DNA from: Sipunculus nudus
Lineage: Eukaryota > Annelida > Sipuncula > Golfingiida > Sipunculidae
Reading direction: 5' to 3'
NCBI GenBank assembly: GCA_026874595.1
Contig: CM049318.1
Span: 49,442,750 to 49,506,749, forward strand
Length of the DNA stretch: 64,000 bases
Shown here piece after piece: positions 22,011 through 60,836 of this stretch (the stretch's first letter is position 1; the number at the start of each line of letters is the position of its first letter). The position numbers and the translations under genes are program-made. The notes under the pieces were generated by a model. It made no database searches, was not told the DNA's origin, and saw only the letters and a list, made by a program, of their open reading frames with translations.

Positions 22011-22021
22011 GAGTGGAAGTC

Positions 22022-22079
22022 ATGAAGCTGTTGTTGGTGACAGTGCTGGCGTTACTGGCCTGCCAGGTGAACTCGCAAG
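22022..22079 (+). CDS. Exon 1: start codon and signal peptide
   Basis: Encodes residues 1-19 plus one base: a Met-Lys start, a hydrophobic core [11 protein letters not shown] and a polar CQVNSQ end, a classic secretory signal with probable cleavage around residues 18-19. The exon ends CAAG with donor GTAAGT, phase 1. A pyrimidine-rich stretch ending CTCCAG at 22010 just before GAGTGGAAGTC-ATG looks like a splice acceptor, so this exon probably begins at 22011 and an untranslated first exon and the promoter lie further upstream, not located. Confidence 0.88.
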
Positions 22080-25000
22080 GTAAGTTAACTATATCACACT
22101 GCGCAGAATCGGACTTTTCTTGTTAAGGTTTGTGGGTTTCAAAAATCCCAATAATCCAAAATGCACCGGGGCTTCTACTTACAGAGATGGCGATCGACTT
22201 AAGAATACAGAAGTGAAGATTTTTGCATATGTAAAATACGCGAGGGGATGACCATGCAAAGAACCATCTGAGATAAAAAAAGAAGTCATGGGATGACAAA
22301 GATAGTCAGTCACAAAGAAAGAATGCATATTGTCGGTAGGGTAGAAGTACAGTAAAACATCGCCACCGCGACCGTATCCAAAACAGAAATTTGTGACGTA
22401 AAAGTTGAAATATACTCACTGTAATAACAGCACGCAAATATACACTAGCTGGATTCGGGGACGGTTGGGGTACAACATTAGGCTCTACTTCGACGAAAAA
22501 AAGCTCACTGGCAGACCTTAAGGCAGGGGGTATTTGAACAGACTGCGTTGTCTTTTTAGGAGCACTTGTTGAAAACGGTACAGTGGTTGGCGTACTGAGC
22601 AATGAAGTAACTGTTGTGTAATACTACAGCGCCAGAAGCAGTTAACAAAGACGGTTATCGAATTGTGTAGAAAACATTCGATAGAAAAAAAACACTGCGG
22701 CGATTTTGATTTAAGTTAGATTTTATGCCAAATAGCATGACAGAAACAGTTTCAAAAGTTTTACATGAATATACATGTACTTAATATATAAAGAAGTAAT
22801 CAAGTCAAAAGATATATAGACCTAGTGACCTGTACGTGCAATAGTAAGAATGTATACATGACTAAGGTAAGTACAAAAGCTGAATAGTTAATCACGATTA
22901 ACATGTGACGTGAGTACAATAAGGTCATCATGAACTAGCACAAGTGACAGATTGATGTATCACACAATTGAATAACTCTGATATTAATGTGTAACATCCC
23001 TTGATGCATTTCACAATAAAAGAACAATGCACACGTAAAAAATGCATAATTATCTACATATAAAGCCTAGTTTTGAGATGGTTAGATTATCGGATGTTAT
23101 TAAGAGGCACCAATACCAGCCAAACGGAGAACACTAAGAGATGTCAGTATTGATTAATTGTGTTATGCCTGATTTAAAATGCAGTTTAACCATAAAGACT
23201 GGGTGGGTGTGACGATGGGACAGACCTGTTTTGTTTTCCGGCTACTGTCACACCAAACGTGTTACTATTTGATGCTTCACCGACATCCGTTTGCTTGTCA
23301 CATACATTTGTTAATTGAATTATCAATCAGAGATGTAGGACTTGATTCCGGACTTTGACTCGAGTCCTGTCTGAAGGCAACTTTTTCAGGGACTTGGATT
23401 CGAGATTCCTGGACTCGGAATCGCACTCGGACTCGGAGGTTATGACTCGAGAAATCAAGCCGAGTCCATCCCGGACTAAAAGGAAAAAAAAAACTACAAA
23501 AAAACAATTTTTTTTGTTTGTAGTTTGCGAACTACAAACAAACTATTTCAAAATAATAACACTGTATATACGAAGCATTAGCTCTGCATCAAGAGCTTCC
23601 GAATGACTCGGACTCAAAGAAGGTTGACTTGCATGTTAATATCTTATTGCTCTTAGCTCAGCCAAATGTACATGGTAACCTAATGATATTAAAATCTTTG
23701 TTCTTTTATTTTGTATTAGATTAACATTCTTAGTATTTCGTTGTACCTCGTTTTATATATCATTGTCATATCGATAAATTTTGTTCATTTAATACCTGGC
23801 ACATGACCCTTCTTACTCAAGAAGTATACTTCCGGTGCAGGCTACCCTGCGGAATGTAAAAAAATAAATAAACTAGTATGTTTTAATTCAAAACAGAGGA
23901 GGGTGATCCGTTGGGTCCACCAGAGAAATGCATGCTGAAAATCGACGTCACGTTCCTGGTAGATTCGTCGGCGAGTGTTGCTACTCGCGGCGGCTACTCG
24001 GAAGTTAAGAAGTTTGTCAAAGCCATCATCGAAAACAACATGGTGACTGACGAATATGCTCGCTTCGCCATGATCACTTTCAGTGACACCGCCCAGGTAA
24101 CTTTTGGACTAGATGACTGCGGGGAAGATGTCCAGTGTATGTTTAACTTCATCGATGCCGCGTCATTACAGGTAAAATATATGAAAACTATTGAAAAAAA
24201 TTGATGATTTGAAATAAAGGTCTAAAAATCGTAAAATAGTCATAAAATGTTCATTTTTCTGAAAATTTGTTTACAACCGGGTCATTTTTCTACCAAACTT
24301 GTCACAAATATATGTTCTTCACAATTTAATTGATCAGAAAAAAGTAGCTTTTAAACGATCTGTCAATCCCACGTAGGGAAAAATAAATATGTAAAATAAA
24401 TAAAGTTAATACTAATTCAGTAAAACACCCTATGTTTAGCGGCCACCTCAATATGTCGATCATCTGTTCACGGTCCCGACTCTCTTTTATTCTTCATATA
24501 AGATCTCGCTTTAACGACCGCCTTAAAAAATGCGACCATTTATTTAGGGGTCCGTGATGGTCTTAATTTCGAGGTTTCACTGTTTAAACATTATATATTA
24601 ATTTAATATGAATTCTAAATTTGATTTTTTAAATATTTTTGTGTTTAATAAAAGTAACATAATGAACCTTATTACGATATTAACCAGGGAGCCAACACAA
24701 ACATTAACGCTGCTTTTGAGCTGGTGATGGATGTCATCTACCGAGGTCCCGTTGCGGGCGACCGACCGGACGGAACAGACGTGGTCCTCCTGATCACAGA
24801 CGGTGAACCCAACATCGACGAGCAACGACTTCTCAGAACAACTACGATAGCCAAGAACAGGGGTATCCGTATCGCCGCAGTGGCTGTCGGGACGGACGTG
24901 TCGGACGATCTGATGTTCGACATCATCTCGGTTCCCTGGTATTTCAACTATTTTTACGCAAAAGATTTTACACAACTGAACGAGATTGTCCCACGTATGA

Positions 25001-28000
25001 AGGAGATGTACTGCCCACCCATCGGCGTCACCACCCCTTCCCCAGGTTTGTTCAGTTTCTTTCCTTATTTAAACGATGCACATTGATATATCTCAGATTC
25101 ATATATTCTATAATAATTTATTGACTACCATAGGGGCTTATAGACAGTCGACGGATATATACTCGGGTTCAGTCCCCGCCGTGGCCATGAAAGTGGGATG
25201 TATTGGCCCGTCCAAGGCCGGTTGTTTTTTTTCGGTATCCTCCACCTCTAGACACTTCCGAACGTCAATATTTGAGCCATGGAGAGTAATTATAATTATT
25301 AATCATAAGTATTATTGCAATCCATGTAAAATAAATAAAGATAAGAATTTAACTTCATGAGCCTTGAATAGCTGATTATAGCCTGATAAAACCGACAATG
25401 TCAGTCTCTTCCGACTATATCTTTCTGGTCTTTCGTTCACTATCATTCTCGGAGCTATTATCGGCTTCCTGTGGTGCAAACAACCCGTGTTTTAAAGGCA
25501 GAAGACGCATTATTGTGCGTTTGAACGCGGCAGCCATTCTAAGCAGGGTTCGAACCCACAGTCATGTCAAACGCCCAACGCCAACAGGACCAGCCCCCCT
25601 TAACAATTACATCTCCGCACTACAGAAATCCTTAATAATGAGAATTACAGTCGTCAACAAGGACCTTAATGTCTTCATTTTGTGGCTACATAGTACCATT
25701 TGCCTACTTATAGATTTTTAGCTCAGCTGACTGTAAGTCATCTGAGCTTTAGCAATCACTCTTTGTCCGTCCGTCTGTCCGTCTGTCTGTCTGTCCGTCC
25801 GTCCGTCCGCCCCTTAACCAGGCACAAATCGTAACTGCTGGTCCTGGAATCTTCTAACTTTACATCCAGAGAGATTCATGAAAAATCTCCTTGGAAACCT
25901 GGAATTAGGTCTCTGTTACCCATATTCTTCAAGCTATGGGGCTCTGAAGTATCCCCAAGACTAATGAAAAAGTTGATACAAAAGCTCAAGTATCTGAACA
26001 ACTAATGCATTGAACACCATGATTTTTTGCACAGATATTGATCATGGAGTGTTTCATCAGTTTCTGCAGACTGGTGGCGCCACCTGTATTTTTTCGATTT
26101 TTTTTTCTCTATTTTTGATACCTTAAAAGATACGGTCATCTGTTAACAGGGCACACATCGTGACTTCTGGATCTGGAATCTTCACACTTTACATCCAGAG
26201 AGGTCCATGAAAAGTCTCCATGGAAACCTGGAATTAGGTCTCTGTTACCAATATTCTTCAAGCTATGGGGCTCCAAAGTGCCCCCCCCCCCTCCCGAGAA
26301 AAATGAACAATTTGATACAAAAGCCCAAGTATCTGCACAACTTATGCATTGATCACTATGATTCTTTGCATGGATATTTGTCATGGAATGTTTCATCAGT
26401 TTCTGCAGACTGATGGCACCAACTGTACTTTTTTTATTTTTTTATTTTTTTTTCTATTGTCAAGACTTTTTAAAGATGCGGTCATCTGTTAACAGGGCAA
26501 CAATCGTAACCGCTGGCCCTTGAATCTTCTTACTTTACATCCTAAAAGGTCCATGAAAGTCTTCTTGGAAACCTGGAATTAGGTCTCTGTTGCCCGTATT
26601 CTTCAAGCTATGGGGCTCCAAAGTACCCCCCAGAATAATGAAAATTTGACACAAAAGCTCAGGTGTCTGAACAACTAATGCATTGATCACCATGAATCTT
26701 TGTATGGATTTGATCATGGAGTGTTTCATCAGTTTCTGCAGATTGGTGGCGCCACCTGAATTTTTTTTTATTTTTTACCATTTTTTCTCTATTTTTGAGA
26801 CCTTTAAAGATGCAGTCATCTGTTAACAGGGCACAAATCTTAACCGCTTGACCTGGAATCTTATTTATTTACATCCAGAGAGGTCCATGAAAAGTCTCCA
26901 TGAAAACCTGGAATTAGGTCTCTGTTACCTATATTTTCTGAGCTATGGGGCTTATAAGCACCCCACAAAATGATTGAAAATTTCATACCAAAGTTGGGCA
27001 CAAATAATAACAATTTAGCCAAGAAACTTCTAACTTGACATCCTGAGAGTTCCTCAAAAGTCTCCCAGATACTGAAATTCGGTCACTGTGACCTATATTT
27101 CCAGAGTTATGCGGTATGTTTGAGCACCCAAGAAATAATGCAAAATACACACAAATTGCCAGATTCCTAAGGAAAGGCTGGACATTATCTTAATTAATTG
27201 CCTGTGCAAGGACATATTGTCAACATGTCAGTCTGCTGAGCGTAATGACCTATTGGTCACTTGTTATGTTTTATTACATTAAGGCATTAAGTTTATCGCG
27301 GGAGTAACGACCTAGCCCGTATGAAAGGTTACGGCGAGAGCCTACATTTCTAATATTATACACTTTTCAGCTTTCCCAAGATTGTTAGCCGTTTTCACTA
27401 TTTTTAAATTAAAGAATACGTTCTCCTTTGTTTAACATTGTCTCCTTCCCCGTTTTGTGTGTCAAAACTGATCAGGGTTCAGTTAGATTGGTTTAATTAT
27501 AGGAGGCTTAGCCCCGATATCTGACGGCTTATAGCGAGAGTTAATATATTTTACCTTTTTTTTAAAAAAGTAAAAAAACCGAGGCTGTTCATTTTTTTTT
27601 ATATGCACATGTTTATAACATGTAGGGGCCCCGACAAAAATATAGACAACAAGGACATCTGTCGGCAAGTCAGACGAACCAGCGTTTCACAAAGCGCGTT
27701 TTACAACTAGTGATCTTTAAACTTCTGCACATATACGACCACCCATATGTTTTTGTAAACATTTTGTCAACACTGCTGTGTTTACAAACAACTTGTAGGT
27801 AAAAAAGCTCATACCTTCATCACAGAGGAGGTACAATAACAGGTAGTACCTAGAGTTCATAAAAATATACACAGAGTAAGACATATATTACATAAATTGT
27901 ACTGAAAAATAGGCAGGTGAATTACAGGCTTTAAATTTGTCAGAATTTTACTGTTTGCAAATGTTTGGACTACATTTTGACTTTTGTTATATAGCGTTTT

Positions 28001-28674
28001 AAGAAATGGAAAACGTGTCATATCGAAACCTGAAGGCTGAACTCTTGTTCGCCGACATTTGTACCAAATACTAGACGGTGTGAAATGAGTGTTATGTAGA
28101 GTTTATATTTAGTTTGAAGAGGGAATAATATTTTAATTTGAGGTATAACAGTGTCAACGGGAACAACTAAATATAAATTTTACAACATTTTTCCTATACA
28201 GATCCTGAGATCATATTGAACAATGAAAAGCTCTCAGTATAATAATATTACTATTTATTTATTCCAGTTATACTACTGTTCTTACTATTTTACATATTTC
28301 TGTACTTCTCATCTTTGTCCAGTTTACTTCGATTGCAACTACGACATTGCAATGCTGGTTGACATGTCTGGAAGCATCATCGAATTTTCCCCCTTTGATG
28401 TTAACTGGAAGTACCTGAGGAGGTTCCTGAAAGATTTTACAGAAAATACCAAAAATACATACCAGCAAGATGTTCTGCTCAGTCTCACAACCTTCCGAAA
28501 CTATGGAAATCTAAAGTTTAACTTCGCTGATTGCAATGGAAACACAAACGTTTCTTGTATGATCGAGGAGATTGACAAGCTCAGGGATCCGGTAAGTTAT
28601 CATTACATTCATTAACTTCATCAAAGTATATAATAAAAATAATAATAATATGCCACTACTGCTGCTACTAATTT

Positions 28675-28709
<35 letters not shown>

Positions 28710-30432
28710 ATAATAATAGTGAAACCACTTATAATACGAATATTACTGCCACTATACTAGTAGAGGTAGTAGTAGTAGAATGCTCGGCGGTTGCGACTGT
28801 CTGTATTCAATAAGCGCAAACTCGCACTCGGTAAACCTCGGCTGATTCCATCGGGAAAACAGTCCGGCAAGGCAAGGTCAAGGCCGGGTCAGTTAACAAA
28901 TGGACGAAAGTGTAACAGCGAACCAATGCATGTTGTGTACCTGTCCTCACAGATTCTACCGGTTAAGCCGATAAGAGAACACTGAGTCACGAAACAGAAA
29001 AAATCAAGATATATTCGTTTTCTGTATGAAAATAAAGTCCTCGCAAGGTGGACGATATATGCAGCATCTATGATAAATTAAACGTTAATGTTAAAAGTGC
29101 TGTCAGGACCACGCCAGATTTCATGTACAGCAATATATCAAGGCAATATCATGTACCTAATTATCGCTTATCCATGTATATTTATTTTAAACTTTGAAAA
29201 TTTAAATATTTTTCTTTACGAGTCAGTGGAAATGGTAACCGGGTAGATTTCCGGCGATGGGTGCCGTATATTTTGGTATTTTATTGAGTCATACACACAA
29301 GGGAGGCCTAATCGGCATCGATCGGCTGAGGTGTTCCGAAATCGTAAAATGGACGGAATTTTTCGCCAACTTTAGATTGTCCGTGTTCTGTCATATAGCA
29401 AATATTGTGTATGTCTGTGCAAGCAGTTCACTGAATCTTATATATACCGGGATCGGCCCAGGATTTTTCCCCTCAACAATTTGCCTTCCTAACAAAATTG
29501 GGGCTCGTCTAACGTTACGGACAACTTTGTGGCCCAGGGAATAAGCTCACCAAAGTGTGACTCCTGGGATAAATAGTCTTGTTCTGATAGCAGAACGCTC
29601 TTAAGAGGGGGTGTGTTACGGGGTGACATAAAAGCGGACCGAACTATCTCCCTAGTGAAGCTTGCTTTGCTAGCGAAGCGGTTGGTACGGCGGACATTTG
29701 CGCCACCGACCTGGGTTCGAAATCCCGGATCGGCCCAGGGTTTTCCCCTCATTTATTTGTCTTCGTAACAATATATATATAAATATATATATTGTTACAG
29801 GGTGACATAAAAGCGGACCGAACTGTGCTAGCGAAGCGGTTGGTTCGCAGGACTATGTATATATATACAGTGAAGCACCATTCATAAGAACACCGTTTGC
29901 CGGAATATTTACAGATGTAAATTTGGACATCTGAAAATGTAACCTGTATATATAGTTATGTTACTTTATTCAAAGTTGAAGATATATTGACGCCATTGTG
30001 TGCTTCAGTTTTACGATTCTCCCTCTTTCAGGATGGAGCCACTAACATGGTAAGGGCTTTCACTGAAGTCAGAGATAAAGTCTTCGGAGTACGTGGAGAT
30101 CGCTCGAACGTCCCAGATTTGATCATGTACATGACGGACGGTTTCCCCAATCCGTTCGACCCACAGCTCTTCCCTCTGACCCGCGATATTAAGGACAAAG
30201 ATAACATACGTATCTTCGGCATCGGTGTGACCAAAAAAGTGAACGTGTCAATTTTGTATGACATCGTCTCATACCCCCCAGAAGAAAATTTCCTCCTTGC
30301 CGACGATTTCGTGCAACTGGCCTCGAAAATCGATGAGATCATTCAAAGAACGTGCGTTGTGCCGACAACAACACCGGCGCCTACCACTCCAGTTCCTTAT
30401 AAAAGTAAGTATATTACCTTTCGCATTACTGA

Positions 30433-30496
<64 letters not shown>

Positions 30497-34633: not shown

Positions 34634-34681
<48 letters not shown>

Positions 34682-34943: not shown

Positions 34944-35012
<69 letters not shown>

Positions 35013-43983: not shown

Positions 43984-44033
<50 letters not shown>

Positions 44034-44697: not shown

Positions 44698-44761
<64 letters not shown>

Positions 44762-45499: not shown

Positions 45500-45575
<76 letters not shown>

Positions 45576-46158
45576 GTTGGTAATTCACCTGTACAATATT
45601 TTATTCTCACCAGGTGTCACTGTGATCGTTATTGGAGTCGGCAACTCTTTCCGGCCTCTAGAATTAGAGAGCATCGCCAGTGATCCTGTCGGTGAGAACG
45701 TCTTCCACGTGGACAGCTTTGATGATCTGAAAAACATACAAAAACGACTAAACGTCGCAATGTGTAAAAGTGAGTACCAGTTTGACCTTCGAGGATTTTA
45801 AATATGATAAAAGTTGTTATCTTTGTTTTATAATTTTCATTATTAATATAAGATCTTTTTATCTTAATTCTAGGTGCAATAATATCAACAATTGCCATAA
45901 TGAAAATAATAATTTCTGTGATTATAATGATTATTATTAGTAGTAGTAATAGTAGTAGTAGGCATATTATTATTATGAGGAGTAGTAGTAGTAGCAGAAT
46001 TCGTAGTTGTAGTAGTACTACTTAGAAGTAAGATTAGAAGTAGATAGTAACGGTATTATCAGTGGTATATTATTAATGATATTTAGGTAAGGGCCTTTGT
46101 TTGCATAGATGGTATTGCCTCTGTTAAGGAAACGAATTCCGTTTAATAGCCATATGAA

Positions 46159-46229
<71 letters not shown>

Positions 46230-49200
46230 TGAGAGAGGGAGAGAATTTTTAATTGGGTTATAAGATTCCGATGTCATACCAGTTACCCCGGTGTTTAGGC
46301 GCATTTGCGCATTCCTGACGGTCAACCTTATTGCAAAGAAGGCATTCCCGATGTCTCTTGCTATAACAATTAGTTATTTGATTAGTTTCTAAGTTTTAAT
46401 GTCTCTTGCTATAACAATTAGTTATTTGATCTGTTTCTAAGTTTTAATGTCTCTTGCTATAACAATTAGTTATTTGATTAGTTTCTAAGTTTTAATGTCT
46501 CTTGCTTAAACAGTTAGTTATTTGATTAGTTTCTAGATTTAATGTCTCTGTGTATAATAATTAGTTATTTGATTAGTTTCTAAGTTTTAATGTCTTTTGC
46601 TATAACAATTAGTTAGTTGATTAGTTTCTAAGTTTCAAGGTCTCTTGCTATAATAATTAGTTATTTGATTAGTTTCTAAGTTTTAATGTCTCTGTGTATA
46701 ATAATTAGTTATTTGTTAGTTTCTAAGTTTTAATGTCTCTTGCTGTAACAATTAGTTATTTGATTAGTTTCTAAGTTTTAATGTCTCTTGCTATAACAGT
46801 TAGTTATTTGATTAGTTTCTAAGTTTTAATGTCTCTGTGTATAATAATTAGTTATTTGTTAGTTTCTAAGTTTTAATGTCTCTTGCTATAACAATTAGTT
46901 ATTTGATTAGTTTCTAAGTTTGAATGTCTCTTGCTATAACAGTTAGTTATTTTATTAGTTTCTAAGTTTTAATGTCTCTATGTTTAACAGTTAGTTATTT
47001 GATTAGTTTCTAAGTTTTAATGTCTCTGTGTATAATAATTAGTTATTTGTTAGTTTCTAAGTTTTAATGTCTCTTGCTGTAACAATTAGTTATTTGATTA
47101 GTTTCTAAGTTTTAATGTCTCTTGCTATAACAGTTAGTTATTTGATTAGTTTCTAAGTTTTAATGTCTCTGTGTATAAAAATTAGTTATTTGTTAGTTTC
47201 TAAGTTTTAATGTCTCTTGCTATAACAATTAGTTATTTGATTAGTTTCTAAGTTTTAATGTCTCTTGCTATAACAGTTAGTTATTTTATTAGTTTCTAAG
47301 TTTTAATGTCTCTATGTTTAACAGTTAGTTATTTGATTAGTTTCTAAGTTTTAATGTCTCTATGTATAACAATATGTTATTTGATTAGTTTCTAAGTTTT
47401 AATGTCTCTATGTATAACAATATGTTATTTGATTAGTTTCTTAGTTTTAATGTCTCTTGTTATAACAATTAGTTATTTGATTAGTTTCTAAGTTTTAATG
47501 TCTCTTGCTGTAACAATTAGTTATTTGATTAGTTTCTAAGTTTTAATGTCTCTTGCTATAACAATTAGTTATTTGATTAGTTTCTAAGTTTTAATGTCTC
47601 TTGCTATAACAATTAGTTATTTGATTAGTTTCTAAATTTTAATGTCTCTTGCTATAACAATTTGTTATTTGAATAGCTTCTAAGTATTAATGTCTCTTGC
47701 TATAACAATTTGTTATTTGATTAGTTTCTAAGTTTTAATACGCTCTGCTTACTTGATTTTCAGATAACACCTGTAGCAGGATGCCATGTAAGAACGGAGG
47801 AACATGTGTTGATGTTGTTAATGGCCGGATATGTCAATGTCCCGACGGCTACTCGGGTCCAGATTGCGGAGACAGTAAGTCTTTTAAGAAATAATAAACA
47901 CACAAGATTTACGGGACCAAGAGGCAAAGATATGATGCAAGAGGGCCATTTTTCATTTTTTATAAAGTAACTGGTCGAAACACATTAAGCTGATTTTTTT
48001 TTCAAGTTGAAAGAAAATAAAAAAAAATGCTTCAGTTCTTGGGATGTTACACGTAATAAACACAAAATTCGATACATGTTATAATTCTTCTAAGGAATCT
48101 AGGCTATACACATACACAGAAAAGAAAGCACACACTACTCACGCTATGCAGTATTCTACAGTATTACTACACATTAAAGTATATATACTAGAACAGATAC
48201 AGTTTCTAACAGTGACAGACGTTACTCTTCGCGTTGCTTCACCTTTTTCTTCCTGTTTCCGCCGACAGAGTGCAGCAGTAAGAAGGACCTTGGACTGCTC
48301 CTGGATGCCTCGGGATCAATCCGGAACTACCGTTTCCAGAAAGTGGTCAACTTCCTCACGAAGGTGCTGGGTAACCTGACCATCGGCCCGGATGACACCC
48401 GTGTCGGAGCAGTGTCCTGGAGCGACGTAGGGACGACGGAATTCGCCCTGGATAAATACAAGACTAAGGAGAACGTCATCCAGGCCGTGAGACACATCCA
48501 GTTCAAGGGCCGCCGCACTTACACCGCCAGCGCTCTCCAAGCTATGGGATCCAACGTGTTCACGAGGGCCGGGGACCGGCGAGATGTACCGAACTTCGTC
48601 CTCATGGTCACTGACGGTAAGTCACGTGATCTGATTGCATAACTGAATAACATATTCCGGGATGTAACCTTTTCTAGTGTTAAAGTCATCTTCAATACTA
48701 ATAGATGTACTCCAACGCTACTCATTCTCACCCCTTGATTCCGCGGCCCCCTCATTTGATCTATTTCATGAATAATGAATAAGGCAATTGAACCAATCAA
48801 ACGACTCGAGTACACTTGTTTAACGCGGATGTCAGGTGCGATGTTTAGATGACAGCTACGCATTGCCGGGAAGGCATTGAAAATATAACCAATCAAATGC
48901 CTTGTTCAGATGGCGTGTAACAGCATATTGTTTGCATTTTATTCGTTGAAAAATTGATTGGCAGTTGTGATTTTACGACGAACACGTGCCGACTTGTTCA
49001 TTATTCATCAAATAAACACTTGAGTTAAACACTAGTGTTGTAAAACCAAGGTCTTTGAAAGCGTAAAAACGGACTTGGTAGTATGAAGATTGGTGAAGTA
49101 GAAATTTCCTATGAATATATACGGTTCTGTTTACGTAATTGTTTTTATTCGCCGGTCAATTGACGGGAATGTTATGATATACCCACCGTCCGTCCGTCCG

Positions 49201-50451
49201 TTAATTTCCAATGTGGCCGCGATAACTTACCGGGGCTTTAATGGATTTTCACAAAGCTCACCATAACTGCTAACCCACAGTTTATCCCGCCCGAGTTATG
49301 GGCAACATCAAAGCATATTTAACAAGGTCACGGGTCACTAGGCTATTGGTGTCGCCGCGGTAAATTATGAAGTATATGAAGGATTTTTATTAAAACTCAT
49401 CAGAAATGTTCATCAAAAAGCCGGCGGCTCACATAAAAAATATCTCTCATTAGTTTGATTTCAGCAAAATCCATGAATATTTAATGAGGTCAGAGGTCAC
49501 CGCACTTTGGAGGCTCCTCTAGACTGACCAAAATCCTATGGATTTTCATGAAACGTACTCACTCTATATAAACACGTATATTATATATATTTTATACACA
49601 TCTCAGGTGGATCTAATATAAGCCCCAGAATGACGATCCCGGCAGCCCGTGAACTGAAACAGAAAGGGACCCATATCACGGTGCTCGCTCTGGGTGACGA
49701 CATGAACCCCAGGGAGCTGAAGGCGCTCGCCAGCGACCCCTGGCAGGAGAACCTCATCGAAGCAGAGACCGAAGACAAGCTGGATTCTCTGATAACAGAT
49801 GTATATAAGAGTACCTGTAATGGTGAGAATAATTTTTACTCCTTCGCTTGGAGGTATTATGTTTTCCCCTTTGTTTGTTTTTTTTAATATGATTGTTAGC
49901 AACATAACGCAATGTATATTGAGCGGATTTTTCATGAAAATGTGTGGAGGTTATATTGCTTCGTAATATTTGTATTCTTAAATGAGATGAAGAATTCATT
50001 TTTCCTGCCTTACCTTTGCCTTTTTTACTTTAACACAGATATCGATGAATGCGAGGCAGATCCATGTCTTAACGGCGGTCAGTGCAGGGATGGACTAAAC
50101 TTTTTCAGGTGTGATTGTGCTCGTGGCTTCGCTGGCGTCACCTGTGGCCTTCGTGAGTAAATTTGTGTGTCTAAGAAAGTTAATCAATATATGTTATAAT
50201 TCAAACAAATTCTATAACACTCTTAGGGGGAAAACGTAGCCAAATCATTTATAATCAACTAAATCATAATCTTTATAATATCATACTAGTTCAATCGCCT
50301 ATATTCGCCAAACGACGACTTAAATTCAAATTCCTACCGTTCTTTTTATTTATTTATTGATTGGTCGCCTTTGGAAATCGCAGATTCAAGAAATCAGTAA
50401 AGAAACGAACGCTTTTTGTGTACGCGATATTGAATAGCGTGCTGTCAAACC

Positions 50452-50530
<79 letters not shown>

Positions 50531-52683
50531 CTGACTGCGTCACGTTCCGATATTTGATATTATTTTTCTAACCTTTTCAAATCCGATACACCCATGAAAA
50601 CGCAGCGTAATGCCCTGTACACATAACGCTACGTCTTCGTTACTCTTGTGATTAAAACGAATCCCAGAGGTAAAGTGGACGCTGCTCATAAAACGCTACG
50701 TCTGAAATACGTTTCCGGACACGTGACAGGAGCGCTTTATGCGATATTATGCTTAGCGCACCAATGAACAGCCTGTTCTCCATACTTACATTTCGCAATC
50801 CGTCTCCTATATACTCAGAATTTTTTTTTAGAAAATGTTCAAATGTGACGTCCAATGAAAAACATAAAAAAAGTGTACATGCATATGACGCCACGTCGGC
50901 ATTGCGTATGCATTTCATCATATCAGAAACGTAACGCAGACATGACAATATATGTACAACCGGCTAAGGTCTCATTTAACGACTAAAGATCCCTGTGACC
51001 CCGGTTTTGGCGAAAGAGTAAGGTTTACTGTATGGTTAATGTTTTTTTTTATTTTTGTGCACAGAATGCCCTGAACGTCGTGACATAGTGCTGATACTGG
51101 ACGTGTCAGGTAGCGTTAACCATATCTACTCTATCATCCTGGAGTTCGCCAAGAAGGTCATCATGTCCCTTCCCATCCACAACGACCAGTTCAGAGTTGG
51201 TGTCATCACATTTGCCGATCGTGCCAACAACCTCATCACATTAAACAAGTAAGATACCCAATCTAGGACAAAGCAGTGTCAAAAGAACTGACTTCGTCAA
51301 TTAGAGCGACAGTTTAATTAGGCTTACAATGTTCACTGTTTGGTTCCTTTATCATGGCTACACACATCTGAGTTTATTCTGACCAGCTGAGCGACTTAAC
51401 CCGTCGGTCACTTGTAAAACAAAGAAGATCGAAATATTGTCGCTTTATTTATGAACAATGAAATCGAATCATATCCTGTCTCGTTCCATACGATTTTCTT
51501 CGGGGTGGTGGGGGGGGGGGGGGGGGGGGGGGAGGGAGAGGAGGCTACCTTTACTTTTTAGGAGTAGGGGCCAATGTATCGTTTGCCCCTTAGGTTTTTG
51601 GAAGAATAAAATGCATAATTTTAAAATAGCGATTTCGATATAATTTTTTACCCATATTTCAGTTTTAATGTTTCATAATTTTTAAAAATAAATTATCAAT
51701 AATGCATCCCATGTGTAAAAGGTTTTAGTAAATAGTCGAATTTTTGTAAATGTAATATAAAATTTTAATTTATTTGAAACAAAATTAAATGATAATAAAT
51801 GTTGAAAAATGACCAAAAATTTCTTTCTTATAACCAAATTATGTATTTTATAAGTGATTGAGTGAAAAAAAATCGTTTTTCTCGAAGAAACTTTGTCCCT
51901 ATTGTCATAAGAGCGGTGGACTAAGGGGGGGGGGGGGGGTCTGTCTGTTTCTCGACTACCTCACATTCTCTCATCAGAGAACCTCACTCTCTCATTTTAT
52001 TGCATCTAAACCCTGAACCTGGAAATATATCATTCTCCATTGAAGCATACACAATGGCTCAAGAGTGCGTAAATGAATATATTTGCAAAAAGCGTTCCTA
52101 ATATAAATCTTTTTTTGATAGATAATTAAATAGGAATATCATCATTTTATATCAAACATGAAGTGACAACTGAATAAAATTTAAAGACTAATTTTAATGT
52201 CAAATTTCAGAGGCGTGCACTTCAGAAAAAAAATCATAGTTTTCTTAATTTCAATGCAAGTTACCTGTCAAAAATGGTCCTTAGGAGATGGTTCTCACTT
52301 TTTTCACATATTTTATAGATACAAAACCACCGCGGACATTTTGAACGCCATGGTGTTCGCAAGGGAGGGAGAGAGGACATACACAAACCTGGCTCTTATG
52401 AACGCCAGGAGGGATCTGTTTTCAACGAGTTACGGTGCCAGACCTGGGGTTGAAAAATTTGCCGTTGTCGTCACGGACGGAATGTCTACCTCACCCAGTA
52501 AGTGTAAAAAGTTTTTTTTTGAGTTTGTACAAAGATCCCGTCACTGGTGTATTTTTTTTCTAAGGGGAGGGGGGGTAGAGCCATGGGCGTCGCCAGTTGT
52601 AATAGGTGGGGGTTCGGGGTGCCAGAGTAGGGTCGAATGGAGCAAGTGTCCGGCATAGGTGCTGGGGCACACCCATTATATAA

Positions 52684-52771
<88 letters not shown>

Positions 52772-54174
52772 AGACTGTCGAGATTAAAATCCGAGAATAA
52801 GTTAAATTATAATGAGAATCCACCTAGAACTTCAATATATATGAAACATTTTTAATATTGAAAAAAAGTTGCCATAGCATAAAAAAATATTGACAATGAC
52901 TGAAAATTGTATATTATTCAAATTATTTTAACTTTCTTAAATTATTTGTTTGAGATGCATGACTCATTATCACAATTCACCTGAAAATAAGAAATAACTG
53001 TAAGTAGATATTGTCTGGGGGGGGGGGGGGGTTGTTGGCCCTATGATTCCCCTCGACTACGCACCTGGGTGGGGGTGGTTGTGAGAACGGTCAGAACCGG
53101 GTAACTTATCATTCATTTGTGGCCGGCAACGAAGCTACCAAACTCCTGTTATTTCCACAGCACGTTATAATTATAAGTTATTAACCGACTTGTACCGCAT
53201 TGCCTCCGGATTCGCCTGACGGTAACCGTATCGGTATCAGGACTGAAAGACGCCACGGCTGAGAGAAGGCCAATACAGAAGGCAAAACTGCACAAATCAG
53301 TTCATTATAATTTTTTATTAAACTAACACTCATATTATCAACACAATTAACGGTGCACAGTTTCAGTGTGTTAATAACTGACTGTATGCAGGCGCACTCT
53401 AAAGTGGCACCTGGAGTCCCCACCTTTTGGTAGATGCTCTTAAGGTAAACATTGTATACTCAGTGTTCATTATCAGATCTAAAAGTTCCCTTAACTTTAA
53501 GCAAACCCTCTCTGTAGGAAATGTTGGAAATTTGGTAAAGATACATCAAAAGATGAGTAAAATATTTCCTGTTATGTTATTGTAAACAGTGTCCGAATTT
53601 GTCCAATCTAAAATAAAAAAAAACAGTATAAGCCATATTGCCTATGGTCATGATGTGAGCCTTCACTTACCTGTCGAACAATTTGAGGATCTTAGATCAG
53701 TAGACTTTATTATTCCGAGATATCCACGTTTAGGTAAAAACATGCTATGATAAAACTTTCACTACTTTTCTAAATACTGTCAAATTGTTAGAATAATCTT
53801 GTGGGCATCTAAACTAACATCTAATCACTTCGAACACATTACACTTCGTGACAAAAAAAAAATATTTATATAATTTTTTTCGGGTTTCAACAGGTCAAAC
53901 ATTGGAAGAGGCAAACAAGCTTCACGCTGACGGACATAGGATAGTTGGGGTGGCAGTCGGCATGGATGCGAATATGGCCGAACTTAACGCCATGGCGAGC
54001 GCACCGGAAGGATGGCACGTGATATCCATACCAGAAACAGGTGACGTTGAAAAAGGCGTGAACGACTTCATGAATATCGTCTGCTCAAACCGACCTGTTG
54101 TTGGCCCAGGGGGGCCGGTAGGTCCTGAAGGACCAATGGGACCGGAAGGGCCGGGAGCACCCGGAAGAAAATAA
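22022..54174 (+). CDS. Secreted six-vWA, three-EGF matrix protein with Gly-X-Y tail (complete 20-exon gene)
   Basis: Joined coding exons: 22022-22079, 23897-24171, 24688-25045, 28323-28591, 30032-30404, 32097-32283, 36033-36307, 38633-38731, 39447-39560, 40261-40387, 42460-42639, 43301-43398, 45614-45769, 47764-47874, 48269-48616, 49607-49822, 50039-50152, 51065-51248, 52319-52497, 53894-54174. Sum 4002 nt, 1333 residues plus TAA. All introns are GT-AG and every phase matches, which strongly supports the model. Order: signal peptide 1-19; A1 ~31-220; A2 ~235-428; A3 ~446-630; EGF1 636-667; A4 ~671-855; EGF2 860-891; A5 ~895-1080; EGF3 1086-1117; A6 ~1121-1304; Gly-X-Y tail 1311-1331. Each A domain is bracketed by a cysteine at both ends, as in matrilin-type modules. 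Family knowledge: vWA/EGF proteins of this kind act in the extracellular matrix and bind collagens or other ligands through the metal site. Inference: matrix or biomineral/byssal role is possible, unproven. Predicted N-glycosylation sequons at N306, N391, N620, N857, N929 and N1013. No transmembrane or coiled-coil segment seen. Confidence 0.9.
22080..23896 (+). other. Intron 1
   Basis: Holds a repeat copy at 22097-22215 shared with 2825-2950, and at 23340-23625 a low-complexity block of GACTCGGACTCG/GAGTCC motifs ending next to a poly-A run. A minus-strand frame at 22306-22602 is Ser/Thr/Pro-rich without domain evidence and is not called. Confidence 0.7.
23897..24171 (+). CDS. Exon 2: first half of vWA domain A1
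   Basis: Residues 20-111, entering in phase 1 after AAACAG and leaving in phase 0 before GTAAAA. It opens with an acidic EEGDP linker, the bracketing Cys31, then the MIDAS loop D42-S44-S46 (DSSAS) after the strand IDVTFLV. Two extra cysteines, C94 and C100 (in DDCGEDVQC), are matched in position only by A2. A TTG at 23911 is internal sequence, not a start. The exon ends immediately before the MIDAS threonine segment. Confidence 0.93.
24688..25045 (+). CDS. Exon 3: second half of vWA domain A1
   Basis: Residues 112-230 plus one base. Begins GANTN with the MIDAS threonine T115, continues through the strand [10 protein letters not shown] with MIDAS D149, and ends with bracketing Cys220 followed by a short proline/threonine linker ([10 protein letters not shown]). 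Acceptor TTAACCAG, donor CCAG-GTTTGT, phase 1 out. The reading frame runs on a few codons into the intron to a stop at about 25084, so an unspliced read-through product would end there. Confidence 0.93.
25360..25600 (-). repeat. Dispersed tRNA-SINE-like repeat, partial copy 3
   Basis: TAGCCTGATAAAACCGAC, TTTCTGGTCTTTCGTTC and GGGTTCGAACCCACAGTC match the 17870-18240 copy; the last is box-B-like on the minus strand. It lies in intron 3. Confidence 0.5.
25715..25815 (+). repeat. TTTTTAGCTCAGCTGAC block with GTCC/GTCT microsatellite
   Basis: TTTTTAGCTCAGCTGACTG and TCATCTGAGCTTTAGCAATC are an inverted pair, followed by (GTCC)n/(GTCT)n. This arrangement is typical of abundant bivalve interspersed repeats and heads the tandem array downstream. 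Confidence 0.65.
25815..27060 (+). repeat. ~335-bp tandem repeat array in intron 3
   Basis: The landmark CAGGGCACAAATCGTAAC recurs at about 25819, 26147, 26493 and 26827, spacing 328-346, with a shorter diverged piece from about 26997. Units share ACATCCAGAGAGGTCCATGA, CTGGAATTAGGTCTCTG, CAAGCTATGGGGCTC and TTTCATCAGTTTCTGCAGA. An 11-base poly-C is at 26281-26291. Confidence 0.85.
27570..27935 (+). repeat. ~400-bp dispersed repeat, copy 2 of 4 (intron 3)
   Basis: GGCTGTTCATTTT, ACATGTTTATAACATGTAGG, GGGGCCCCGACAAAA, CTGTCGGCAAG, ACCAGCGTTTCAC, ACAAACAACTTGTAGG in the order of the 17000 copy. Confidence 0.7.
28323..28591 (+). CDS. Exon 4: first half of vWA domain A2
   Basis: Residues 231-320. 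Starts VYFDC with bracketing Cys235 directly after the A1 linker, so A1 and A2 are in tandem with no EGF between them. MIDAS loop is D244-S246-S248 (DMSGS). It carries the extra cysteine pair C301 and C309 with a sequon at N306. Acceptor TTTGTCCAG in phase 1, donor CCG-GTAAGT in phase 0, the same phases as exon 2. The open frame extends upstream of the acceptor to 28223, but that part is intronic; an earlier AG at 28267 would shift the frame. Confidence 0.92.
28674..28706. repeat. (TAC)n trinucleotide repeat in intron 4
   Basis: About eleven TAC/ACT units, flanked by AAT and TAG runs to 28770. Confidence 0.85.
29445..29860 (+). repeat. Cluster of tRNA-derived SINE copies in intron 4
   Basis: Parts of three copies in a row: a 3' end at 29450-29500 (GATCGGCCCAGGATTTTTCC), a full copy at about 29515-29770, and a 5' piece at 29795-29850 that repeats GGGTGACATAAAAGCGGACC. 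In the full copy TAGCGAAGCGGT resembles tRNA box A and GGTTCGAAATCC (29713-29724) box B. The AT-rich palindrome at 29772-29795 separates the copies. Another copy is at 34690-34950. Confidence 0.75.
30032..30404 (+). CDS. Exon 5: second half of vWA domain A2 and Pro/Thr linker
   Basis: Residues 321-444 plus one base. Begins DGATN with MIDAS T324; D356 sits in YMTDGFP. Sequon at N391. The domain closes with Cys428, followed by a linker of about 16 residues rich in Thr and Pro ([12 protein letters not shown]), a likely O-glycosylated spacer. Acceptor CCCTCTTTCAG, donor AAAA-GTAAGT, phase 1. An (AT)n microsatellite starts 28 bases into the following intron. Confidence 0.92.
30432..30494. repeat. 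(AT)n microsatellite in intron 5
   Basis: About 60 bases of alternating AT with one TTT interruption, 28 bases after the exon 5 donor. Confidence 0.9.
30880..31650 (+). repeat. 36-bp minisatellite in intron 5, about 21 units
   Basis: Unit GGGGATAATGATGATGTTGATGACGACAACAACGAA with small changes. Because 36 is divisible by three, long frames open on both strands: plus 31137-31640 (167 codons, Asp-rich, 12-residue repeat [12 protein letters not shown]), plus 31144-31623, and minus 30825-31709. No splice site joins the Asp-rich frame to exon 5 in the right phase, so I call it non-coding. Confidence 0.85.
32097..32283 (+). CDS. Exon 6: first part of vWA domain A3
   Basis: Residues 445-506 plus two bases. 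RCSDPGD leads into the strand MVFVMD; bracketing Cys446 and MIDAS D457-S459-S461 (DSSGS) are present. Acceptor is a long T-run then GCTTCAG; the donor GTCAGT follows LNK in phase 2, the same place and phase as in exon 18 of domain A6. That shared intron position links A3 and A6. Confidence 0.92.
32490..32780 (+). repeat. ~290-bp dispersed repeat, copy C (intron 6)
   Basis: GAGTGCAAGCATCCGTCATG, CCGATTCTTCATTAGTCAAT, TTCCCGAAATGG and an AACAAACAAACACACACGAA tail match copies A and B. Confidence 0.7.
33460..33995. mobile_element. MITE-like inverted-repeat element with CCAAT and GC boxes (intron 6)
   Basis: Left end ACACCAGAGGGGAG..GTCCAATCAGATT; right end read in reverse ACACCAGGTGGCGG..AGCCAATCAGATG. 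The interior is GC-richer than its surroundings and carries several CCAAT motifs (about 33491, 33529, 33547, and reversed at 33922) and GGGCGGAGCC at about 33879. It reads like a promoter but the symmetric ends favour a transposon. Confidence 0.45.
34639..35009 (+). repeat. tRNA-SINE copy flanked by two (TA)n tracts (intron 6)
   Basis: (TA)n at 34639-34677 and 34948-35009 enclose a SINE copy at about 34690-34945 with AACTTTGTGGCCCAGGGAAT, GAGTGACATAAAAGCGGA, TGTTCGAATCTAGG (box-B-like) and GATCGGCCCA. It matches the 29515-29770 copy. Confidence 0.75.
35482..35970. mobile_element. CAGGGGCGTAGCC-type non-autonomous DNA transposon (intron 6)
   Basis: Starts CCAGGGGCGTAGCCAGG and ends near CTCTGGCTATCGTGCG, an imperfect inverse. 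The interior (GTTTGAGACTGTAA, TTCATTATCACAAG) matches 52575-53075 in intron 19, so both are copies of one family. hAT-like termini by appearance only. Its right end lies about 60 bases before exon 7. Confidence 0.5.
36033..36307 (+). CDS. Exon 7: middle of vWA domain A3
   Basis: Residues 507-598 plus one base. Contains MIDAS T528 in [10 protein letters not shown] and D561 in [10 protein letters not shown]. Acceptor TTCTTTCACCAG, phase 2 in; donor GTGAGT after [10 protein letters not shown], phase 1 out. Unlike A1 and A2, the intron does not sit in front of the MIDAS threonine. Confidence 0.93.
37050..38030 (-). pseudogene. Decayed, internally deleted LINE retrotransposon (intron 7)
   Basis: On the minus strand, several endonuclease-like pieces appear in order: about 38012-37935 ([20 protein letters not shown]), 37888-37676 ([15 protein letters not shown] and [18 protein letters not shown]), then across an in-frame TAG at 37673-37675 to [13 protein letters not shown] and [14 protein letters not shown] at 37672-37540. 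A frameshifted piece follows at about 37413-37280 ([19 protein letters not shown]). Then, with the reverse-transcriptase core missing, comes the C-terminal LINE motif [20 protein letters not shown] at about 37180-37115, continuing LYGEL. Similar to the endonuclease/RT frames often annotated as craniofacial development protein 2-like. Non-functional. Element limits may be wider, about 36890-38480. Confidence 0.8.
38633..38731 (+). CDS. Exon 8: C-terminal end of vWA domain A3
   Basis: Residues 599-631 plus one base; a 99-nt symmetric phase 1-1 exon too short and without a start codon to appear as an independent frame. It encodes the closing strand and helix of A3, [17 protein letters not shown] then a helix ending at bracketing Cys630. 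Sequon at N620 (NIT). Acceptor ATATCGTTTCAG, donor GTGAGT. Confidence 0.88.
39447..39560 (+). CDS. Exon 9: EGF domain 1
   Basis: Residues 632-669 plus one base; a 114-nt symmetric 1-1 exon holding one whole EGF module. Six cysteines at 636-667 in the order C-x4-C-x5-C-x8-C-x-C-x8-C, with CENGGTC and CTCPDGF typical of the fold. It lacks the D-x-D/N-E/Q calcium signature before the first cysteine, so it is a plain EGF. Acceptor CTACCTTAG, donor GTACGT. Confidence 0.9.
40261..40387 (+). CDS. Exon 10: start of vWA domain A4
   Basis: Residues 670-711 plus two bases. Bracketing Cys671 then strand DIIFTLD with MIDAS D682-S684-S686 (DKSGS). Acceptor TTTCATCTAG, phase 1 in; donor GTATGT after DMQ, phase 2 out. 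This intron is earlier in the fold than the first intron of A3 or A6, lying just before the second beta strand. Confidence 0.9.
40388..42459 (+). other. Intron 10 with two repeat copies
   Basis: 40420-40615 is the GCGGATCCAGGGG element with a 13-base poly-C (40442-40454) and inverse end CTGGATCCGCC. 40682-40960 is a tRNA-SINE relative: TTAGCGAAGCGGTAGAACG (box-A-like) and GGTTCAAATCC (40752-40762, box-B-like). 41885-41925 is a tRNA-like fragment. The rest is AT-rich without features. Confidence 0.6.
42460..42639 (+). CDS. Exon 11: second part of vWA domain A4
   Basis: Residues 712-771 plus two bases. RAGLVSFSD strand, then MIDAS T750 in [11 protein letters not shown]. Acceptor CTATTTCAG and donor GA-GTAAGT, phase 2 in and 2 out. 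The preceding intron is 2.1 kb and contains a SINE-like copy and a poly-C bearing repeat. Confidence 0.91.
43301..43398 (+). CDS. Exon 12: third part of vWA domain A4
   Basis: Residues 772-804 plus one base, 98 nt. Carries MIDAS D785 in [10 protein letters not shown] and the following helix [11 protein letters not shown]. Acceptor TTTTCTGCTACAG, donor ATGG-GTGAGT, phase 2 in and 1 out. Confidence 0.9.
43440..43650 (+). repeat. ~290-bp dispersed repeat, copy D (intron 12)
   Basis: GGAATGCAAGGCTCCCAAAC, TTCACTTATTCGGCC, TGAATCCGGATCAC and ACACCAAAATCTGATTGATT match copy B. Confidence 0.7.
43988..44046. repeat. (AT)n microsatellite (intron 12)
   Basis: About 59 bases of alternating AT with one AA interruption. 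Confidence 0.9.
44702..44758. repeat. (AT)n microsatellite (intron 12)
   Basis: Uninterrupted, 57 bases. Confidence 0.9.
45500..45569. repeat. (GT)n(GA)n compound microsatellite next to exon 13
   Basis: About ten GT units run directly into 25 GA units, ending 44 bases before the exon 13 start. Confidence 0.92.
45614..45769 (+). CDS. Exon 13: C-terminal end of vWA domain A4
   Basis: Residues 805-856 plus one base. Strand VTVIVIGVG, then a helix [10 protein letters not shown] and closing helix ending at Cys855. Acceptor TTATTCTCACCAG lies only 44 bases after the end of a (GT)n(GA)n microsatellite; donor AAAA-GTGAGT, phase 1. Confidence 0.9.
45910..46035. repeat. (TAG)n/(ATT)n trinucleotide tract (intron 13)
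   Basis: Degenerate TAG and ATT runs. Confidence 0.7.
46162..46225. repeat. (TA)n(GA)n compound microsatellite (intron 13)
   Basis: Fourteen TA units run directly into about seventeen GA units. Confidence 0.92.
46351..47739 (+). repeat. 48-bp minisatellite, 29 units, with higher-order structure (intron 13)
   Basis: Consensus pieces AATGTCTCTTGCTATAACAA, TTAGTTATTTGATTAG and TTTCTAAGTTTT make a 48-base unit repeated 29 times. Variant units (CTCTGTGTATAATAATT with a 2-base deletion; CTCTATGTTTAACAG) recur in fixed order: the seven units at about 46686-47017 are repeated in the same order at 47018-47354. The array ends 24 bases before exon 14. Confidence 0.95.
47764..47874 (+). CDS. Exon 14: EGF domain 2
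   Basis: Residues 857-893 plus one base, 111 nt, symmetric 1-1. Six cysteines between 860 and 891, with CKNGGTC and CQCPDGYSG. Sequon at N857 (NNT). No calcium signature before the first cysteine. It is too short for ordinary ORF detection and lies 24 bases downstream of a 29-unit minisatellite. Acceptor TTGATTTTCAG, donor GTAAGT. Confidence 0.9.
48269..48616 (+). CDS. Exon 15: first two thirds of vWA domain A5 in one exon
   Basis: Residues 894-1009 plus one base. Bracketing Cys895, MIDAS D906-S908-S910 (DASGS), T977 in RRTYTASAL and D1009 at the very end (LMVTD). The exon covers what A3, A4 and A6 split over two or three exons, so one or two introns were lost here or never gained. It is more GC-rich than its surroundings. 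Sequon N929. Acceptor CCGCCGACAG, donor GACG-GTAAGT; phase 1-1. Confidence 0.93.
48674..49040. mobile_element. MITE-like element (intron 15)
   Basis: Left CTAGTGTTAAAGT and right, reversed, CTAGTGTTTAACT form terminal inverted repeats; inner TTCATGAATAATGAA and TTCATTATTCAT and two ACCAATCAAA motifs add symmetry. About 360 bases, no coding capacity. Confidence 0.45.
49185..49600 (+). repeat. CCGTCCGTCCGT-headed interspersed repeat (intron 15)
   Basis: A short CCGTC run followed by GATTTTCACAAAGCTCACC-like and CAAGGTCACGGGTCAC-like text, resembling repeats common in bivalves. Confidence 0.45.
49607..49822 (+). CDS. Exon 16: C-terminal third of vWA domain A5
   Basis: Residues 1010-1081 plus one base. 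Starts GGSNIS (sequon N1013) completing the TDGGS motif across the splice, then helix AARELKQKG, strand ITVLALGD and a closing helix ending with Cys1080. Acceptor ACACATCTCAG, donor AATG-GTGAGA; phase 1-1. Confidence 0.92.
50039..50152 (+). CDS. Exon 17: EGF domain 3, calcium-binding type
   Basis: Residues 1082-1119 plus one base, symmetric 1-1. Begins DIDEC, the calcium-binding EGF signature, with six cysteines at 1086-1117. The third-to-fourth cysteine segment [10 protein letters not shown] fits the C-x-D/N-x4-F/Y-x-C pattern for Asp/Asn beta-hydroxylation. It is the only one of the three EGFs with both features. Acceptor TTTAACACAG, donor GTGAGT. Confidence 0.93.
50454..50526. repeat. (TA)n(TG)n compound microsatellite (intron 17)
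   Basis: About 38 bases of TA then 34 bases of TG. Confidence 0.92.
51065..51248 (+). CDS. Exon 18: first part of vWA domain A6
   Basis: Residues 1120-1180 plus two bases. Cys1121, MIDAS D1132-S1134-S1136 (DVSGS), then helix and strand [10 protein letters not shown]. The donor GTAAGA follows TLNK in phase 2, matching exon 6 of A3 exactly in position. Acceptor TTTTTGTGCACAG. Confidence 0.92.
51249..52318 (+). other. Intron 18 with two long poly-G tracts
   Basis: Poly-G at 51510-51532 (23) and 51925-51939 (15) enclose an AT-rich block of about 400 bases, the layout of a small non-autonomous element. Confidence 0.5.
52319..52497 (+). CDS. Exon 19: second part of vWA domain A6
   Basis: Residues 1181-1240 plus one base. 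MIDAS T1201 in [10 protein letters not shown] and D1234 in VVVTDGM. Acceptor is weaker than most (CATATTTTATAG), phase 2 in; donor CCCA-GTAAGT, phase 1 out. The frame is open upstream of the acceptor to 52197, but that part does not fit the domain and is intron. Confidence 0.9.
52558..53075. mobile_element. CAGGGGCGTAGCC-type element, copy 2, with (TA)n(GA)n (intron 19)
   Basis: GGGCGTCGCCAG at the left and CGACTACGCACCTGGG at the right are inverse partners. GTTTGAGACTGT and ACTCATTATCACAA match the intron 6 copy. It carries a (TA)n tract 52689-52740 running into (GA)n to 52768, and a 15-base poly-G at 53017-53031. Confidence 0.55.
53894..54174 (+). CDS. Exon 20: end of vWA domain A6, Gly-X-Y tail and stop
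   Basis: Residues 1241-1333 and TAA at 54172-54174. Completes A6 (strand [10 protein letters not shown], closing Cys1304) and then a tail with six Gly-Pro-X style triplets from 1311 to 1328 ([18 protein letters not shown]) ending APGRK. Acceptor CGGGTTTCAACAG. An AATAAA overlaps the stop at 54170-54175; a donor-like AAG-GTAGGA at 54191/54192 suggests the transcript instead continues into a spliced 3' UTR. Confidence 0.93.
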
Positions 54175-54191
54175 AATATGACTGAAATAAG

Positions 54192-55653: not shown

Positions 55654-55713
<60 letters not shown>

Positions 55714-57550: not shown

Positions 57551-57559
57551 ATATTGCAT

Positions 57560-60832: not shown

Positions 60833-60836
<4 letters not shown>

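What the first reader, a model, noticed from the sequence alone, without database searches (positions are those of the whole stretch)
22022..54174. Complete gene for a six-vWA, three-EGF, Gly-X-Y-tailed secreted protein
Twenty exons join with matching phases into 1333 residues in the order SP-A-A-A-EGF-A-EGF-A-EGF-A-(GXY)6. Known matrilins have at most two A domains with EGF repeats and a coiled coil; this protein alternates A and EGF after an A triplet and ends in a collagen-like tail without a coiled coil. I know of no named protein with exactly this architecture, so it may be a lineage-specific matrix protein.
Basis: partly seen in the sequence, partly recalled or inferred. Interest (0 to 1): 0.75.

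Follow-up and report, generated by a model that had tools for sequence, protein, structure and literature searches.

The report
Six-A-domain secreted matrix protein gene
This stretch holds one complete 20-exon gene for what looks like a secreted, multi-module matrix protein that probably cross-links extracellular fibres; its parts are all familiar, and only their exact order, with a very short collagen-like tail, seems to be a new variant.

Summary
Rebuilding the gene gave 20 exons (22022-54174, +), 19 of 19 introns GT-AG with matching phases, 1333 residues and one terminal stop. Pfam finds six VWA and three EGF domains above cut-off; the order SP-A-A-A-EGF-A-EGF-A-EGF-A-(GXY)6 is correct. A profile scan found no other A or EGF fragment in the window. 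The nine module boundaries that carry introns are all phase 1. A1 and A2 are a distinct pair (extra Cys pair, shared phase-0 intron); A3-A6 form a second group. All six A domains keep the MIDAS residues. The 34 mature cysteines all lie inside domains and the tail has no Y-position proline, so disulphide-linked or triple-helical trimers are not expected.

The protein fails a defining feature of matrilins, AMACO, Pif/BMSP and collagens, but VWA proteins are abundant in molluscs (164 in one pearl oyster, PMC5597905), and a VWA+EGF protein is reported from Perna nacre (PMC6641155). "Lineage-specific" and "molluscan" could not be tested: no animal genomes are held here. Verdict: a soundly modelled new variant of a known kind. 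The collagen stub is the one point of wider interest.

The parts
22022..22079 (+). exon 1: start codon and signal peptide ([19 protein letters not shown])
   Evidence: signal peptide judged by eye, no program run
23897..24171 (+). exon 2: A1 first half
24688..25045 (+). exon 3: A1 second half and Thr/Pro linker
28323..28591 (+). exon 4: A2 first half
30032..30404 (+). exon 5: A2 second half and Thr/Pro linker
32097..32283 (+). exon 6: A3 part 1
36033..36307 (+). exon 7: A3 part 2
38633..38731 (+). exon 8: A3 C-terminal end
39447..39560 (+). exon 9: EGF1
   Evidence: PF00008, 4.1e-7
40261..40387 (+). exon 10: A4 part 1
42460..42639 (+). exon 11: A4 part 2
43301..43398 (+). exon 12: A4 part 3
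45614..45769 (+). exon 13: A4 part 4
47764..47874 (+). exon 14: EGF2
   Evidence: PF00008, 1.1e-8
48269..48616 (+). exon 15: A5 part 1
49607..49822 (+). exon 16: A5 part 2
50039..50152 (+). exon 17: EGF3, of calcium-binding type by consensus (recalled) and by its solved matches (Notch, factors IX and X)
   Evidence: (PF00008, 2e-7)
51065..51248 (+). exon 18: A6 part 1
52319..52497 (+). exon 19: A6 part 2
53894..54174 (+). exon 20: A6 end, six Gly-X-Y triplets (54103-54156), stop codon 54172-54174; AATAAA at 54170

Best explanation
One complete gene for a secreted, multivalent extracellular-matrix adaptor of about 145 kDa (pI about 5). Shown from sequence: six A domains, each with the residues of the metal-ion-dependent adhesion site (MIDAS); three EGF modules; phase-1 introns at the nine module boundaries that carry one; 34 mature cysteines, all inside domains and even in number in each. 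Inferred: the protein is secreted and monomeric, a beads-on-a-string whose A domains bind collagen or other acidic matrix ligands through MIDAS, with EGF modules (one of calcium-binding type) as spacers, so that one molecule bridges several fibres, as is thought for mussel PTMP1 and collagen. The six-triplet tail is short, lacks Y-position proline and has no cysteine after the A6 pair, so it should not trimerise; it is either a small ligand motif or a leftover of a collagen domain. The gene was most likely assembled by phase-1 exon shuffling: a tandem duplication for A1/A2, and repeated duplication of an A-EGF unit for A3-A6.
For: Gene model; Pfam. Across three searches that together cover A1-A6 and the EGFs, the two best-ranked solved sequences are each time collagen VI alpha-3 and mussel PTMP1 (60 of 157, 66 and 161 matches shown). 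Collagen VI alpha-3 ranks first by summing many A domains; on A1-A2 its best single stretch has 28.9 bits against 45.5 for PTMP1. D-x-S-x-S, Thr and TDG are invariant in six of six A domains, flanking Cys in six of six. Cys ledger: 35 = 1 in the signal peptide + 16 in A domains + 18 in EGFs. A1/A2 share an extra Cys pair (columns 71, 79) and a phase-0 intron at column 91; A3-A6 are 30-34% identical to one another. No other A/EGF fragment found in the window. PTMP1, two A domains, binds collagen (PMC4754843, abstract and passages).
Against: No transcript, proteome or orthologue evidence was available. MIDAS residues do not prove ligand binding, and the ligand is assumed by analogy. Disulphide pairing and monomer state are inferred from counts. 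No signal-peptide or coiled-coil program and no structure prediction was run. A1 and A2 are 30% identical to each other, no more than A3-A6 among themselves, so their pairing rests on the shared cysteines and intron.
Confidence: 0.6

Rival explanations
1. A former VWA-containing collagen that lost its triple helix: the six triplets are the stump of a longer Gly-X-Y domain that once followed A6, as has been proposed for some molluscan VWA proteins.
For: GXY stub fused directly to A6 in the last exon, AATAAA overlapping the stop; collagen VI alpha-3 is the top-ranked solved sequence; PMC5597905 discusses that some VWA proteins may be collagens that lost triple-helical repeats (passages).
Against: The collagen VI rank comes from summed domains; on A1-A2 the single-domain match to PTMP1, which is only two A domains, is better. 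No collagen-like run in the 9.8 kb downstream on the + strand at 5 of 5 or 7 of 8 triplets; a more decayed exon would be missed. Gain of a few triplets is equally possible, and there are no relatives to polarise the change.
Confidence: 0.25
2. The gene is longer than the model: a donor-like site inside the GXY stretch (54117|GTAGGT) splices to a collagen domain beyond the window, and the stop at 54172 marks a short isoform.
For: The site scores 7.9 on a generic donor matrix, more than 8 of the 19 used donors and as much as one other; the site is in phase 0 within the collagen repeat.
Against: 42 GT sites on the window's + strand score as high; no collagen-like run in 54175-64000 on the + strand, while the longest intron of the gene is 3.7 kb.
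Confidence: 0.12
3. A shell, byssus or glue matrix protein specifically (biomineralisation or adhesion), rather than a general connective-tissue adaptor.
For: VWA proteins are in molluscan shells, VWA/EGF 'matrilin-like' genes in a semislug's foot (PMC5597905, PMC6641155, PMC11178922; passages); PTMP1 of byssus is among the best matches; acidic pI.
Against: No chitin-binding domain at E up to 0.1, no Asp-rich stretch in the model; the organism is not identified; no expression data.
Confidence: 0.3
4. Two neighbouring genes fused by the model (an A1-A2 gene and an A3-A6 gene), or a short A1-A2 product made by reading on past exon 5.
For: A1/A2 differ from A3-A6 in cysteines and intron pattern; reading on past the exon 5 donor meets a stop at 30509-30511, so a short A1-A2 product is possible.
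Against: The exon 5 donor (9.4) and exon 6 acceptor (4.0, the best of those listed) match in phase; the exon 6 frame has no ATG between its upstream stop and the splice site. A separate signal-peptide exon for A3 was not searched for.
Confidence: 0.06

Closest known systems
AMACO / VWA2 (vertebrate)
   Same: Secreted, several A domains with single EGF modules between and after them; A domains probably closed by flanking cysteines
   Different: Three A domains, two EGFs, a Cys-rich domain, order VWA-Cys-EGF-VWA-VWA-EGF (PMC10095167, PMC5774751; passages)
Matrilins
   Same: A domains plus EGF modules; matrix adaptor
   Different: At most two A domains, EGFs in series, C-terminal coiled coil (recalled); here six A, single EGFs, no room for a coiled coil
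Collagen VI alpha-3
   Same: Long run of A domains; top-ranked solved sequence by summed score
   Different: Long triple helix and microfibril assembly (recalled); here six triplets, and EGF modules between A domains
PTMP1 of mussel byssus
   Same: A-domain matrix protein that binds collagen; second-ranked, and the better single-domain match on A1-A2
   Different: Two A domains only (PMC4754843, passages)
Pif / BMSP shell proteins
   Same: VWA proteins of mollusc shells; BMSP has four A domains (PMC3374290, passages)
   Different: Chitin-binding domain and a mineral-binding part; no chitin-binding domain here
Perna viridis nacre protein Unigene34815 (best hit: C. gigas collagen alpha-3(VI), VWA+EGF)
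   Same: Bivalve VWA+EGF matrix protein annotated as collagen VI-like
   Different: Order and number of domains not given in the table row seen; may or may not be an orthologue
Hcol3 (Hydra, recalled) and Nematostella NV2.11346
   Same: A domains alternating with a small Cys-rich module, one with and one without a triple helix
   Different: WAP instead of EGF (PMC12549020, passages)

Membership tests
Matrilin | A domain(s) with EGF-like modules | tested here: met
Matrilin | C-terminal coiled coil that trimerises the chain (feature recalled) | tested here: not met
   29 residues follow the last A-domain Cys and are mostly GXY; by reading, no coiled-coil program run
AMACO/VWA2 | VWA1-Cys-rich-EGF-VWA2-VWA3-EGF order | tested here: not met
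   order against PMC10095167
VWA-containing collagen (VI, XII and others) | Long Gly-X-Y triple-helical domain | tested here: not met
   six triplets only; no other collagen-like run downstream on the + strand within the window
Pif/BMSP | VWA plus chitin-binding domain | tested here: not met
   no chitin-binding family at E up to 0.1
SVEP1/polydom | Sushi, HYR and pentraxin domains beside VWA and EGF | tested here: not met
   none at E up to 0.1
VWA superfamily, MIDAS-bearing type | D-x-S-x-S, Thr and Asp of the MIDAS in a VWA domain | tested here: met
   six of six A domains by sequence; fold not modelled
Exon-shuffled extracellular module protein | Modules bounded by phase-1 introns | tested here: met
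   9 of 9 intron-bearing module boundaries phase 1, against 4 of 10 introns inside modules; the A6-tail junction has no intron
Orthologue of a described molluscan VWA+EGF protein | Same domain order with one-to-one sequence match | not testable with these tools
   no animal proteome or genome held; prokaryote and viral scans empty

The most novel reading that the evidence does not exclude
The protein is a caught intermediate in the loss (or the gain) of a collagen triple helix by an invertebrate VWA matrix protein: a six-A, three-EGF chain whose six-triplet stump still marks where the helix joined, and which has changed between a trimeric collagen and a monomeric adaptor.
Probability: 0.22. 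Interest if true: 0.5.

Novelty: new variant of a known kind. Interest (0 to 1): 0.28.

Why it matters
It adds a fully modelled architecture to the large, little-characterised set of invertebrate VWA matrix proteins. Its collagen stub bears on a question discussed in PMC5597905 (passages): whether VWA proteins of molluscan shells are collagens that lost their helix, or forms that never had one. Orthologues with longer or absent tails would decide this for one gene.

Tried and rejected
(1) An acidic exon in intron 5. The 36-bp tandem repeat at 30934-31658 reads ([12 protein letters not shown])n in a 231-codon ORF and ([12 protein letters not shown])n in a 294-residue ORF on the other strand. 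The acidic reading would have made this an Asp-rich mineral-type protein. Rejected: in the D-rich frame 9 synonymous and 59 non-synonymous changes are what neutral placement gives (9.4 and 58.3), and the 21 AG sites in that ORF have at most 8 of 19 pyrimidines before them. On raw counts two other frames show a synonymous excess: + frame 1 (30 against 14.4, with 2 stops) and the minus hydrophobic frame (32 against 22.5). With each distinct change counted once both fade (9 against 6.0, P 0.12; 10 against 9.0, P 0.40).
(2) Further A or EGF modules or pseudo-exons: a profile of the gene's own domains over 2918 six-frame ORFs of 15 aa or more found the 16 A and 3 EGF exons; the best other hits have E = 3.3 (A) and 0.54 (EGF).
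(3) Downstream collagen exons: none at the thresholds.
(4) Relatives: the whole protein against prokaryote genome contigs and A6 plus tail only against viral contigs: 9 pattern matches each, none confirmed, as expected for an animal-type gene.
(5) tRNA and Rfam scans: nothing.
(6) RGD at residue 341 in A2: three of the other five A domains (A1, A3, A5) read GDR at the same loop, so the motif may be incidental.

Literature: ten searches of the held library. 'Six VWA domains' returned 4 papers, by title two on collagen VI and two on Plasmodium. I read passages of 15 papers, none in full. PMC11291548, on VWA diversification in Pif/BMSP, was seen only in a search listing. 'Not seen in print' therefore covers these searches and passages only.

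Full report
Check of the observation. I rebuilt the gene from stop-to-stop ORFs and splice-site scores and joined the exons. Exon 8 was missed by my own filter and found by eye. Generic donor scores of the 19 used donors run from 3.7 to 12.5, so the weakest rest on phase and domain fit. Chance is excluded: with the stop frequency of the gene's own introns, 1333 open codons have a probability near 10^-38; the other two frames of the spliced sequence hold 70 and 80 stops; GC is 0.36 in introns and 0.50 in exons. Pfam gives six VWA (PF00092) and three EGF (PF00008) matches above the curated cut-offs. A profile of these domains run over 2918 six-frame ORFs found the 16 A and 3 EGF exons and nothing else better than E = 0.54; since it was built from these same domains, this tests for stray copies, not for the domains themselves.

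Anatomy. From residue 20 on, the chain is 144.9 kDa with pI 5.0. Aligning the A domains suggests two kinds. A1 and A2 share an extra pair of cysteines (columns 71 and 79) and a phase-0 intron at the same column (91); each is followed by a short Thr/Pro linker. A3-A6 carry only the two flanking cysteines and are 30-34% identical to one another; A1 and A2 are 30% identical to each other and 18-26% to the rest. A3 and A6 share a phase-2 intron at column 70. Each EGF is one phase 1-1 exon. The nine module boundaries that carry an intron are all phase 1, against four of the ten introns inside modules; the A6-tail junction lies inside exon 20. This is the pattern of exon-shuffled extracellular proteins (established knowledge).

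What the sequence says about function. All six A domains keep the MIDAS residues, so metal-dependent ligand binding is plausible for each. Of 35 cysteines one is in the signal peptide, 16 are in A domains and 18 in EGFs: none is left in linkers or tail for links between chains. EGF3 matches the calcium-binding consensus (recalled) and, in the solved sequences, EGF modules of Notch and of factors IX and X; EGF1 and EGF2 match the O-fucose consensus (recalled). The tail [18 protein letters not shown] has proline only in the X position; six such triplets without a trimerising neighbour should not form a stable helix (inference from general collagen chemistry). I therefore favour a monomeric, multivalent adaptor that bridges matrix fibres. 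In three searches covering A1-A6, collagen VI alpha-3 and the mussel byssal protein PTMP1 rank first and second. The first place of collagen VI comes from summing its many A domains; on A1-A2 PTMP1 gives the better single-domain match (45.5 against 28.9 bits). PTMP1, with two A domains, binds collagen (PMC4754843, passages).

Comparison with what is known. By the tests run it lacks a defining feature of each named family considered: no room for a coiled coil (matrilin), other order (AMACO; PMC10095167), no long helix (VWA collagens), no chitin-binding domain (Pif/BMSP), no Sushi or pentraxin (SVEP1). It may work like them, but is filed under none. Related mixtures are reported: 164 VWA proteins in the pearl oyster genome, with disordered nacre after silencing six of them (PMC5597905); a VWA+EGF protein with a collagen VI best hit in Perna nacre (PMC6641155); VWA/EGF 'matrilin-like' genes in a semislug's foot (PMC11178922); WAP/VWA alternation with and without a helix in cnidarians (PMC12549020). 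I read passages of these papers, not whole texts.

Limits. No animal genome or transcript set is searchable here; the prokaryote scan (whole protein) and viral scan (A6 and tail only) confirmed nothing, and the window's own genome could not be reached in eight identical requests. Mollusc origin, lineage specificity, orthology and tissue are therefore open. The inner donor-like site at 54117 scores as well as many used donors, so a longer collagen isoform beyond the window is not excluded. The acidic repeat in intron 5, the most tempting extra exon, failed the coding tests.

Verdict. Observation confirmed; interpretation partly supported; new variant of a known kind. The short collagen stub is the one feature with reach beyond annotation, because it bears on whether some invertebrate VWA matrix proteins are collagens that lost their helix.

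Noticed in passing
30934-31658: 36-bp tandem repeat, about 20 copies, in intron 5; open on both strands (231-codon Asp-rich ORF on +, 294-residue hydrophobic ORF on -). The D-rich frame looks neutral and has no good acceptor; synonymous excess in two other frames fades when each distinct change is counted once.
   Followed up: yes
46351-47739: 48-bp tandem repeat, about 29 copies, ending 24 bases before the EGF2 exon (47764), so that the array abuts the 3' splice site.
   Followed up: partly
25827-26993: 334-bp tandem repeat, 3.5 copies, in the 3.3-kb intron between A1 and A2.
   Followed up: no
4307-5023: 148-bp tandem repeat, 4.8 copies, upstream of the gene.
   Followed up: no
37352-37888, minus strand: Two ORFs that look like pieces of a non-LTR retrotransposon endonuclease in intron 7 (resemblance recalled); neither matched Pfam at E up to 0.1.
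   Followed up: partly
61131-61559 and 62023-62274, minus strand: Two ORFs that may be exons of a minus-strand gene or transposon; only a sub-threshold KOW-like match for the first (E = 0.041), none for the second.
   Followed up: partly
31968-32073: GAT/GAC-rich acidic reading frame just before the exon 6 acceptor; a stop separates the exon 6 frame from it.
   Followed up: partly
54170-54175: AATAAA overlaps the stop codon; if used, the 3' UTR would be only some tens of bases.
   Followed up: no
22010-22011: Pyrimidine-rich 3' splice site 11 bases before the start codon, suggesting a non-coding first exon upstream.
   Followed up: partly
54117-54122: Donor-like site (7.9) inside the Gly-X-Y coding stretch, in phase 0; possible route to a longer isoform.
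   Followed up: partly
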